A stretch of 64,000 bases of DNA. Source: Thermocatellispora tengchongensis (GTDB lineage Bacteria; Actinomycetota; Actinomycetes; Streptosporangiales; Streptosporangiaceae). Every line of letters starts with the position of its first letter. Within the stretch, counting starts at the first letter, position 1. Below the pieces are notes generated by a model. It searched no databases. It had not been told where the DNA came from and saw only the letters and a program-made list of their open reading frames with translations. Position numbers and translations under genes: made by a program. This document shows positions 19,736 to 22,270 of the stretch, piece by piece. The stretch lies in NCBI RefSeq assembly GCF_014202315.1, contig NZ_JACHGN010000001.1, positions 271,757 through 335,756 on the forward strand. Reading direction: 5' to 3'.

Positions 19736-19756
19736 AAGCGGGCACAGTGTCCACTT
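19736..19756. promoter_or_regulatory. TetR operator copy 2
   Basis: 21-bp dyad AAGCGG-N9-CCACTT, the same motif as copy 1, centred exactly 42 bp away, about four helical turns. It lies 17 bp before the TetR start. Confidence 0.7.
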
Positions 19757-19773
19757 GCGGTAGGATGGGGGCC

Positions 19774-20445
19774 ATGAGCGATGGCGCTTCACCGCGGGCC
19801 GCGCGAGAGCTCCCTGTGTTCGAGCCCGGCTCTGCCGGGCGGTCCCTGCCCCAGGTCAAGCAGCCGCCGGTCAAGCAGCCGCCGGTCAAGGAGCGGGCGG
19901 ACGCGGCGCGCAACCGGGCCCGCGTGCTGGCCGCCGCCGAGCGGATCTTCGCCACGCGGGACGACCCTCGCGAGGTCACCATGGACGAGATCGCGCGTGC
20001 GGCGGGCGTAGGCCGGGCGACGCTCTACCGCCGCTTCCCCGACCCCGCGTCGATCGCCGTCGCCCTGCTCGACCAGCACGAGTTCGAGCTGCAGGAGCAG
20101 ATCCTGCGCGGGCCGCCGCCGCTCGGGCCCGGCGCGTCCCCCGGTGACCGGCTCGCCGCCTTCTACGCGGCGATGGCCGAGCTGCTGGAGCGCCATCTCC
20201 CCCTGGCGCTCGGCGCGGAGACCGGCAAGGCCAGGTTCGCCACCGGCGCGTACGGGTTCTGGCGGGCCCACGTCCGAGTGCTGCTGGCCGAGGCCGGCGC
20301 GCCCGACCCCGAGGCCGCGGTGGACGCCGCGCTCGCGCCGCTCTCCCCCGAGGTCTACGAGTACACCCGCCACACCCTCGGCCACTCGAAGGACCGGATC
20401 ACCGCCTCCCTGACCTGGCTCGCCCGCCGCCTCACCGGCGACTGA
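19774..20445 (+). CDS. TetR-family transcriptional regulator
   Basis: A 223-residue TetR repressor. A Pro/Lys linker with a short repeat ('VKQPPVKQPPVKE') precedes the helix-turn-helix ('VTMDEIARAAGVGRATLYRRF'); the C-terminal helical domain binds an unknown ligand. ATG 19774 is chosen because earlier in-frame starts would overlap the operator. It is divergent from the YdcZ-type transporter and flanked by the two 21-bp operators, so it likely controls both. Its 3' end overlaps the convergent lyase gene by 14 bp. Confidence 0.9.
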   Translation: MSDGASPRAARELPVFEPGSAGRSLPQVKQPPVKQPPVKERADAARNRARVLAAAERIFATRDDPREVTMDEIARAAGVGRATLYRRFPDPASIAVALLDQHEFELQEQILRGPPPLGPGASPGDRLAAFYAAMAELLERHLPLALGAETGKARFATGAYGFWRAHVRVLLAEAGAPDPEAAVDAALAPLSPEVYEYTRHTLGHSKDRITASLTWLARRLTGD

Positions 20446-22270
20446 CGATCTCGGTACGCGTGCCGCGGACGGCGCGCAGCAGCAGGTCGCCGTGGACGAG
20501 GCCGGTCATCTCGTGCAGGTCGCGAGTGAGGTTCCTGTCGTTCTCCAGTTCCGCGATCCTGGAGCGGATGACCGCGTGGATGCGCCGGGTCCCGTCGCCG
20601 AGGCGCGGGGGCGGCGCGCCGTCCCTGATCCCCCTGATCACCAGGTCCACGCCCTGGGCGCTCATGAGGTACTGCACGGCCAGGACCGTGTCCAGCCGTT
20701 CCTGGTTCGCCCGCAGGTTGCGCAGGGAGGCCATGGCCATGCTGTTGTGGTCCTCCTGGCCGTCCTTGGCGGGCCGGGACAGGGTCCCGGACGGGAACGC
20801 GCGGGCCTGCATCTCCGGGATCAGCGCCGTGGCGACGGTCTGGAGCTGGACCATGCCGGAGTTGAGCCCCACCGTGCCGCCGGCCAGGTTGGCGGGCAGC
20901 CCGTAGCTCCACCTGCTCGACAGCAGCCGCGCCGACAGTTCCTGCGACAACACCCCGGCATCGACGAGGCCGGCGTTGAGCGCGTCCAGGCCGTGGCCCA
21001 TGACCGCGCCGTCCCAGTTGCCGCCCATCACGAACTCCACCTCCCCGTCGCCGTCGCGGAACAGCAGGGGATTGGAGGTGGAGGCGTTCAGCTCCTTGCC
21101 GAGGATCTGCCGGGAGTGGTGCAGGTTCCGCCGCAGCGACGCCAGGATGTGCGGCGCGGCGCGTACGGACACCGCGTCCTGAATGCGGTGGGTGTCCTCC
21201 GGGTTGAACCGCCTGCGGGTGCGGTCGGTCATGAACTCGCTGCCCCGCAGCAGGGCCCGCAGCCGGGCGACGACCTGCTCCTGCTCCGGGATCGCGCGTT
21301 CGGCGTGGGTGCGCGCGTCCAGCGAGCCCGGCTCGGCCCGGATGGCCTCCATGAACAGGGCGAACGCCCCCTCGGCGTGGTCGGCCTGCGCCTCGGCCCG
21401 GTGCAGCGCCGCCAGGTACGCGGCGGCGACGACCGTGCTGCCGCTCATGATCGGCAGCGCCTCGCCCATCTCCAGCTCCAGCGGGACGATCCCCGCCTCC
21501 CGGAGGATCTCCCTGGCGGGGCCGACCCGGGGGGGCCGGCCCGGCCGCATCAGCCCGGCGCACGCGCCCTCGCCCCCGGTGGCCACCAGCCCGGCCACCG
21601 CCATCGGCTGCAGGTCACCCGACCCCAGCGAGCCGACCTGCGGCAACACCGGGGTGACTCCCTTGTTGACCAGCTCAAGCAGCTTCCTGGGCAGTTCCGG
21701 CCGGACGCCCATGTGCCCGCGGGCCATCTGGTTCGCCCGGATCACCAGCGCCAGCCGGGCGATGTTCCCGGGGAGGACGGGCTCGGTCGCCACCCCGTGC
21801 GAGGCGAGGATCCGCTTTTGGAACTCCCTGGACTCCTCCACGCCGATCGGCCTGTCCTTCAGCGGGCCGAGCGCCTGGTTCCACCCGTACACGCGGGGTG
21901 GCGGCGGATTCTGCCGGGTGATCAGCCGCACCGCGTCCTCGCGGAAGGCGCGCATCTTCCGCACGGCCTCCGGGGCGAGGCGCACCCGCAGGCGCGGCGT
22001 CGTGAGCACCTGGTACGCCTCTTCCACCGTGAGGCTGTCGCCGTCGAGGCGCAGCGAGACCACGGGGCCGTCGGCGGGCTGCGGCGGGTCGATCCGCAGG
22101 TCCCGGCAGTCGGCGATCGTCCTGTGACGGGCCGGGGCGGCCGGCTGCGGTGTGCCCGGATCGGCCGGAGCGGCCAGGGCGGGGGGCGCGCACCCGGCGA
22201 TCAGCGCCGCGCACCCGCCGGCGATGAGCCGTTTCGCCGGCGCGACACGCAGCAGTCCATATCCACGCAT
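20432..22270 (-). CDS. Exported aromatic amino acid (histidine/phenylalanine) ammonia-lyase family lipoprotein
   Basis: A 612-residue member of the MIO-dependent aromatic amino acid lyase family. Preserved features: Tyr128 in 'VYGWNQALG' (compare 'YGVNTGFG'), 'GSGDLQPMA' at the cofactor site, 'TSNPLLF', 'GGNWDGAVMG' and 'QEDHNSMA'. Two are unusual. The cofactor tripeptide normally Ala-Ser-Gly reads Gly216-Ser217-Gly218. The N-terminus carries a signal peptide with a lipobox ('LIAGC', Cys27), whereas family members are normally cytoplasmic. 'QDAVSVR' replaces the usual 'QDAYSLR'. It would act as a surface-anchored enzyme on an amino acid or related molecule. The reaction is uncertain. Confidence 0.8.
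   Translation of the reverse strand: MRGYGLLRVAPAKRLIAGGCAALIAGCAPPALAAPADPGTPQPAAPARHRTIADCRDLRIDPPQPADGPVVSLRLDGDSLTVEEAYQVLTTPRLRVRLAPEAVRKMRAFREDAVRLITRQNPPPPRVYGWNQALGPLKDRPIGVEESREFQKRILASHGVATEPVLPGNIARLALVIRANQMARGHMGVRPELPRKLLELVNKGVTPVLPQVGSLGSGDLQPMAVAGLVATGGEGACAGLMRPGRPPRVGPAREILREAGIVPLELEMGEALPIMSGSTVVAAAYLAALHRAEAQADHAEGAFALFMEAIRAEPGSLDARTHAERAIPEQEQVVARLRALLRGSEFMTDRTRRRFNPEDTHRIQDAVSVRAAPHILASLRRNLHHSRQILGKELNASTSNPLLFRDGDGEVEFVMGGNWDGAVMGHGLDALNAGLVDAGVLSQELSARLLSSRWSYGLPANLAGGTVGLNSGMVQLQTVATALIPEMQARAFPSGTLSRPAKDGQEDHNSMAMASLRNLRANQERLDTVLAVQYLMSAQGVDLVIRGIRDGAPPPRLGDGTRRIHAVIRSRIAELENDRNLTRDLHEMTGLVHGDLLLRAVRGTRTEIVSRR

What the first reader, a model, noticed from the sequence alone, without database searches (positions are those of the whole stretch)
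20432..22270. Aromatic amino acid lyase with lipoprotein signal and GSG instead of ASG at the cofactor
Members of the HAL/PAL/TAL family are cytoplasmic and form the MIO cofactor from Ala-Ser-Gly. This one has a lipobox (Cys27), Gly216-Ser217-Gly218, Tyr128 kept, and QDAVS for QDAYS. It may be a surface enzyme with new chemistry, for instance on exogenous amino acids or phenolics.
Basis: partly seen in the sequence, partly recalled or inferred. Interest (0 to 1): 0.6.

Follow-up and report, generated by a model that had tools for sequence, protein, structure and literature searches.

The report
Exported lyase lacking the MIO cofactor
This soil-bacterium gene encodes an exported relative of histidine-degrading enzymes that has lost one residue of the three that build the family's usual cofactor, and its relatives' gene neighbourhoods suggest it strips trimethylamine from ergothioneine-like compounds outside the cell.

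Summary
The ORF (window 20432-22270, minus strand, 612 aa) and the residues listed are real, but the reading "GSG instead of ASG" is wrong. The loop is GSLG-SGDL, one residue shorter than GSxG-ASG-DL: Ala142 of HAL is deleted, and G216 is the conserved glycine before it. In 37 of 45 relatives Ser217 is Thr, in one Ile. Asn195 (HAL) is Ser and Tyr280 is Val/Thr in all 20 clade rows compared. MIO cannot be expected. Other catalytic residues (Tyr53, His83, Gln277, Arg283, Glu414) are invariant.

Ergothionase, a MIO-free trimethylamine lyase, has the same short loop and Asn-to-Ser change. The window clade is nevertheless placed beside a MIO-type enzyme, suggesting a second MIO loss (not proven; AU p = 0.084).

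Export is a clade trait: 42 of 46 members have a signal-like N-terminus, against 0 of 40 canonical HALs. The lipobox is not conserved. In five relatives, and only those among 45 genomes, the lyase lies near an S-Me-THD gene of ergothioneine-type catabolism, with a thiourocanate-hydratase-like urocanase. The window copy has no such neighbours.

Best reading: exported MIO-free trimethylamine lyase of ergothioneine or another histidine betaine. New variant of a known kind; chemistry untested.

The parts
20432..22270 (-). Exported MIO-free aromatic-amino-acid-lyase homologue, 612 aa
   Evidence: ORF, PF00221 364 bits, AlphaFold model matching HAL (Z 39) and ergothionase (Z 38.6)
22163..22270 (-). 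Residues 1-36: signal peptide (positive n-region, hydrophobic core, ALA-AP cleavage site)
   Evidence: 42 of 46 clade members have a signal-like N-terminus versus 0 of 40 canonical enzymes; dS exceeds dN here against L005/L006
22190..22192 (-). Cys27 of lipobox L-I-A-G-C, window copy only
   Evidence: sequence; Gly at this place in L005 and L006
22061..22063 (-). GTG70, only alternative start upstream of the domain
21887..21889 (-). Tyr128, equivalent of HAL Tyr53
   Evidence: invariant in clade, ergothionase and canonical rows
21857..21859 (-). Lys138, clade-invariant; also Lys in ergothionase and in L088; Ala in 17 of 19 canonical rows
21605..21634 (-). GSLG-SGDLQP (213-222), MIO loop shortened by one residue (Ala142 of HAL absent)
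21443..21445 (-). Ser276 in place of HAL Asn195
   Evidence: Ser in 34 of 34 short-loop rows, Asn in 19 of 19 canonical rows
21161..21181 (-). QDAVSVR (364-370): Gln277 and Arg283 kept, Tyr280 replaced by Val
21014..21016 (-). Trp419 in place of HAL Phe329
   Evidence: Trp in 20 of 20 clade rows, Phe elsewhere
20753..20767 (-). KDGQE (502-506): clade Lys502 and catalytic Glu506 (HAL Glu414)
19747..20445 (+). TetR-type regulator, convergent, 14-bp overlap with the end of the lyase gene; link to the lyase not shown
   Evidence: Pfam TetR_N; not conserved beside relatives

Best explanation
The gene encodes an exported lyase of the HAL fold that works without MIO. The MIO loop lost one residue and the residues that serve MIO (HAL Asn195, Tyr280) were replaced, while the acid/base and carboxylate-binding residues were kept. 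Without the electrophile an ammonium group cannot be expelled well, but a trimethylammonium group can: base-catalysed 1,2-elimination from a histidine betaine (ergothioneine, S-methyl-ergothioneine or hercynine) would give (thio)urocanate and trimethylamine, as in ergothionase. In some relatives the product would feed a thiourocanate hydratase, S-Me-THD protein and M20 hydrolase encoded alongside; the window lineage keeps only the exported lyase. Shown: short loop, residue pattern, export signal, gene neighbourhood in relatives. Inferred: absence of MIO, trimethylamine release, the substrate, and that the window copy keeps the activity of its clustered relatives.
For: Loop one residue short in every clade member that shows it. 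All 34 short-loop rows, ergothionase 6s7j included, have the gap and Ser for Asn195; all 19 canonical rows have neither. Ergothionase loop SSIG-EGDI; it lacks MIO and turns ergothioneine into trimethylamine and thiourocanate (PMC13405746). Lys138 is shared with ergothionase. Tyr128, His158, Gln364, Arg370, Glu506 and Asp219 are invariant, so a functional active site is under selection. S-Me-THD gene in 5 of 45 clade genomes, in all five within about 10 kb of the lyase; the neighbouring urocanase is closest to 7NED, 617 bits versus 513 for the next, and 7NED is titled thiourocanate hydratase; M20, MFS and IclR genes complete the set in L027 and L046. Allokutzneria (L039) has only HutH and this lyase as candidates. 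Export: 42 of 46 versus 0 of 40.
Against: The window copy and about 40 relatives lack the pathway genes nearby, and those 40 genomes lack that S-Me-THD type altogether. The clade does not group with ergothionase in the tree and lacks its loop Glu. Residue 367 is Thr in most cluster-linked members but Val in the window lineage, so the substrate may have shifted. Trp419 is unlike both HAL and ergothionase. P. eucalypti also carries another ergothionase-like lyase (L147).
Confidence: 0.5

Rival explanations
1. MIO-free exported lyase, but for another substrate: elimination from a different extracellular amino acid or betaine, or an E1cB-type deamination or hydration unrelated to ergothioneine.
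For: Most members, the window copy included, lack ergothioneine-pathway neighbours; residues 367 and 420 vary between cluster-linked and other members; PAL can act by a MIO-independent route on activated substrates (PMC7247363).
Against: The only informative neighbourhoods point to thiourocanate; core residues are the same across the clade.
Confidence: 0.27
2. Catalytically dead exported protein (pseudoenzyme or binding protein) derived from a HAL.
For: MIO triad broken; loop modelled with low confidence.
Against: Catalytic residues Tyr128, His158, Gln364, Arg370 and Glu506 are 100% conserved across 20 divergent rows; dN/dS about 0.26-0.29 over the domain against the nearest relatives; presence in pathway clusters.
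Confidence: 0.13
3. One reading: G-S-G cyclises to a MIO-like group and the enzyme is a lipoprotein ammonia-lyase or new MIO enzyme.
For: Gly at the first triad position could in principle cyclise (from memory, not tested); Ser217 is present in the window copy.
Against: Loop one residue short, Thr or Ile in 38 of 45 members, Asn195 and Tyr280 lost; Ser-to-Ala in a PAL abolishes MIO and activity (PMC3903478); the lipobox is not conserved.
Confidence: 0.05
4. Cytosolic protein started at GTG70; the signal sequence is untranslated.
For: GTG70 is in frame just before the domain.
Against: Signal-like N-termini in 42 of 46 relatives versus 0 of 40 controls; dS greater than dN and conserved IADC...DPP block upstream of residue 70.
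Confidence: 0.05

Closest known systems
Ergothionase (ergothioneine trimethylamine-lyase), Treponema denticola, PDB 6s7j/6s7q
   Same: HAL fold (Z 38.6); MIO loop one residue short; Ser for Asn195; non-Tyr at 280; Lys138; Tyr53, His83, Gln277, Arg283, Glu414 kept
   Different: Loop residue Glu rather than Thr/Ser; Phe rather than Trp at 329; crystal chain begins at the domain with no N-terminal extension; different branch of the tree; 22% identity
Histidine ammonia-lyase (HutH), P. putida PDB 1b8f and the genome's own L001
   Same: Fold (Z 39), most catalytic residues, tree side
   Different: HutH has A/C-S-G, Asn195, Tyr280, Phe329 and no signal-like N-terminus
Tyrosine aminomutase SgTAM, PDB 2ohy
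   Same: Best single-sequence PDB match (207 bits, about 30% identity)
   Different: MIO present; aminomutase; no signal
MIO-type lyase of Agrobacterium vitis plasmid (L088)
   Same: Sister of the clade in the tree (94/85 and 98/92); Lys at 138 and 502; near amidohydrolase and M20 genes
   Different: ASG, Asn195, Tyr280 and Phe329 all kept; function unknown
Own-genome paralogue L004 family (GAIG-TGDL)
   Same: Short loop and Ser for Asn195
   Different: No signal-like N-terminus; Tyr280 and Phe329 kept; separate branch

Membership tests
PF00221 aromatic amino acid lyase superfamily | Profile match over the full domain and HAL fold | tested here: met
   364 bits, cut-off 27.3; Z 39 to HAL
MIO-dependent ammonia-lyases and aminomutases (HAL/PAL/TAL/TAM) | A/C/S-Ser-Gly triad in a loop of canonical length | tested here: not met
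   Loop one residue short in all members compared, Thr in most
MIO-dependent ammonia-lyases and aminomutases (HAL/PAL/TAL/TAM) | Asn195 and Tyr280 (HAL numbering) | tested here: not met
   Ser and Val/Thr in 20 of 20 clade rows
MIO-dependent ammonia-lyases and aminomutases (HAL/PAL/TAL/TAM) | NCBIfam cut-offs for HutH, PAL and aminomutases | tested here: not met
   Best 315 bits against a cut-off of 524
Ergothionase | MIO-free short loop with Ser at position 195 | tested here: met
Ergothionase | Glu at the loop position (SSIG-E-GD) | tested here: not met
   Thr/Ser/Ile in the clade; whether this Glu defines the family is not established here
Ergothionase | Common descent with 6s7j to the exclusion of MIO enzymes | tested here: inconclusive
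   Free tree separates them, AU p = 0.084
Ergothionase | Genes for thiourocanate catabolism alongside | tested here: inconclusive
   Yes in five relatives; no at the window locus
Ergothionase | Releases trimethylamine from ergothioneine | not testable with these tools
   needs an enzyme assay
Bacterial lipoprotein | Lipobox Cys conserved among orthologues | tested here: not met
   Homologous Cys only in the window copy
Secreted (Sec) protein | Signal peptide conserved among orthologues | tested here: met
   42 of 46 versus 0 of 40 canonical by a simple hydropathy rule; no dedicated signal-peptide predictor was available

The most novel reading that the evidence does not exclude
A second, independent origin of MIO-free lyase catalysis in the HAL fold, by deletion of the same residue as in ergothionases, giving an exported member of the superfamily: a secreted trimethylamine lyase that destroys ergothioneine or related betaines outside the cell.
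Probability: 0.3. Interest if true: 0.75.

Novelty: new variant of a known kind. Interest (0 to 1): 0.58.

Why it matters
MIO is treated as the hallmark of this enzyme family, and databases call most members ammonia-lyases. The clade shows that the cofactor-forming triad can be lost while the rest of the active site is kept, and gives a simple sequence mark (short loop plus Ser at 195) to find MIO-free lyases now filed as histidine or aromatic amino acid ammonia-lyases. If the substrate is ergothioneine, it means some soil actinomycetes degrade this antioxidant outside the cell and release trimethylamine, and the two lineages would allow a direct test of how MIO dependence is lost.

Tried and rejected
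Reading GSG as an Ala-to-Gly swap: rejected by spacing. Lipoprotein as the clade's location: rejected by orthologues. Operon function from the window's own neighbours (TetR, YdcZ-like exporter, DUF4407, YtkA-like): none conserved beside relatives. Five widely shared ORF clusters in the neighbourhood comparison were the lyase itself and shadow frames across it. One ancestry for all short-loop enzymes: disfavoured, not rejected. Plasmid hits annotated HutH (L088-L090) all proved to have ASG. The S-Me-THD protein had no PDB match. The second AlphaFold job (urocanase) gave a poor model (pLDDT 52.5) and served only to read PDB titles. Open-access literature on MIO-free members was scarce; the key ergothionase papers are not in the library and were used only through PMC13405746. 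The own-genome urocanase comparison picked the wrong frame and is not used.

Full report
Observation. The ORF at 20432-22270 (minus strand) is a real gene: 612 aa, GC3 0.95, Pfam Lyase_aromatic at 364 bits, but far below every NCBIfam cut-off (315 of 524 bits for HutH). The genome has four PF00221 proteins: two canonical (L001 with CSG, L002 with ASG), the window protein, and L004.

The cofactor loop. Against SgTAM (MIO modelled as one residue), PpHAL, T. cruzi HAL and the own paralogues, the window protein reads GSLG-SGDL where canonical enzymes read GSxG-ASG-DL. One residue is missing. Whichever position takes the gap, the stretch from the invariant GS to DL is one residue shorter. Forty-five relatives were found in Nonomuraea, Actinomadura, Saccharothrix, Streptomyces, Amycolatopsis, Pseudonocardia, Nocardia and others; all that show the loop have the short form. 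Counting the window copy, 45 members show it, with Thr in 37, Ser in 7 and Ile in 1. The AlphaFold model is good overall (pLDDT 85.5); within the domain its least certain residues are 214-216, in this loop.

Residue pattern. In an alignment of 53 sequences, all 34 short-loop rows have Ser at the Asn195 position and all 19 canonical rows have Asn. The window clade also has Val/Thr for Tyr280, Trp for Phe329, Lys at 138 and (19 of 20) Lys at 502, while Tyr53, His83, Asp145, Gln277, Arg283 and Glu414 are invariant. Ergothionase 6s7j shows the short loop (SSIG-EGDI), Ser195, Leu280 and Lys138. It is reported to lack MIO and to release trimethylamine and thiourocanate from ergothioneine (PMC13405746). 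A serine mutant of a PAL loses both MIO and activity (PMC3903478), so a clade whose Ser is mostly Thr in a shortened loop is unlikely to make MIO. That is an inference, not a measurement.

Descent. The clade is one group with full support. With loop columns removed it is placed next to the A. vitis enzyme L088 (98/92), which keeps ASG but shares both extra lysines, and apart from the ergothionase-like short-loop enzymes (96/92). This suggests that MIO was lost at least twice. The AU test does not reject a single short-loop group (p = 0.084), so the point stays open; long branches are present.

Export. With one rule applied to all sets, 50 of 54 clade loci (42 of 46 after removing eight loci, L080-L087, that repeat genomes already counted) have an upstream start giving a positively charged, hydrophobic signal-like N-terminus, against 0 of 40 canonical and 0 of 17 other short-loop loci. 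The exceptions are three Pseudonocardia members and L011, whose start is uncertain. The N-terminus of the window protein is translated sequence by its substitution pattern. Cys27 makes a formal lipobox, but the closest relatives have Gly there, so lipidation may hold for this copy only.

Neighbourhood. No gene is conserved beside the lyase across the clade. In Amycolatopsis suaedae (L027), Allokutzneria (L039) and three Pseudonocardia (L043, L046, L049), however, the lyase lies near an S-Me-THD/DUF917 gene; the fuller set of IclR, urocanase, S-Me-THD, M20 and MFS genes was read in L027 and L046. A search of the 45 clade genomes found this S-Me-THD type in exactly those five, each time within about 10 kb of the lyase. 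The urocanase is closest to 7NED (617 bits, next 513), whose PDB title is thiourocanate hydratase. Thiourocanate is the ergothionase product. In Allokutzneria the only other PF00221 protein is HutH. In Deinococcus and Rhizobium plasmids a similar set lies beside short-loop lyases of other branches.

Mechanism. MIO serves to turn ammonium into a leaving group (established for the family). A trimethylammonium group leaves without it, so a MIO-free lyase with the acid/base residues kept is best explained as a trimethylamine lyase of a histidine betaine (inference from ergothionase). The exported form would act on substrate outside the cell. For the window copy the substrate is open: its locus has no such cluster, and position 367 differs from most cluster-linked members.

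Distribution. 34 of 341 genomes of the window's family, in 4 of 68 genera, carry the clade; in a draw of 395 from the class only the window's own genome scored above 300 bits.

Verdict. New variant of a known kind; interest 0.58.

Noticed in passing
L004 1453-2931 and L117 (own genome, contig C4 250340-251815): A second MIO-free HAL paralogue with loop GAIG-TGDL, no signal-like N-terminus, beside a LacI-type regulator; the family occurs in 82 of 200 genomes of the order and has no stated function here.
   Followed up: partly
L088 7992-9605 (Agrobacterium vitis plasmid pAvCG78a): Canonical ASG lyase annotated HutH but with Lys at both clade positions, in an operon with amidohydrolase, M20-type Zn hydrolase and an ABC transporter; probably not a plain HutH.
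   Followed up: partly
L093 10150-11685 and L095 3408-4982 (Deinococcus and Rhizobium plasmids): Short-loop lyases (TSLG-ESDL, GSIG-CADI) next to DUF917, urocanase, Zn hydrolase and amidohydrolase genes, annotated only as aromatic amino acid ammonia-lyase.
   Followed up: partly
L099-L102, L104-L108, L112: Several further short-loop (presumably MIO-free) HAL homologues in Actinomycetota with varied loops (GQAD, GAAD, GAGD, GTGD, GASD), so MIO-free members look common and unrecognised.
   Followed up: no
L042 1878-3551 (Tamaricihabitans): Clade lyase beside an MFS transporter and a urocanase only 45% identical to the L027 one, with no S-Me-THD gene of that type in the genome; may point to a different betaine such as hercynine.
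   Followed up: no
L007, L009, L011: Apparent frame breaks in the lyase gene of some relatives (or assembly errors), found while building gene models.
   Followed up: no
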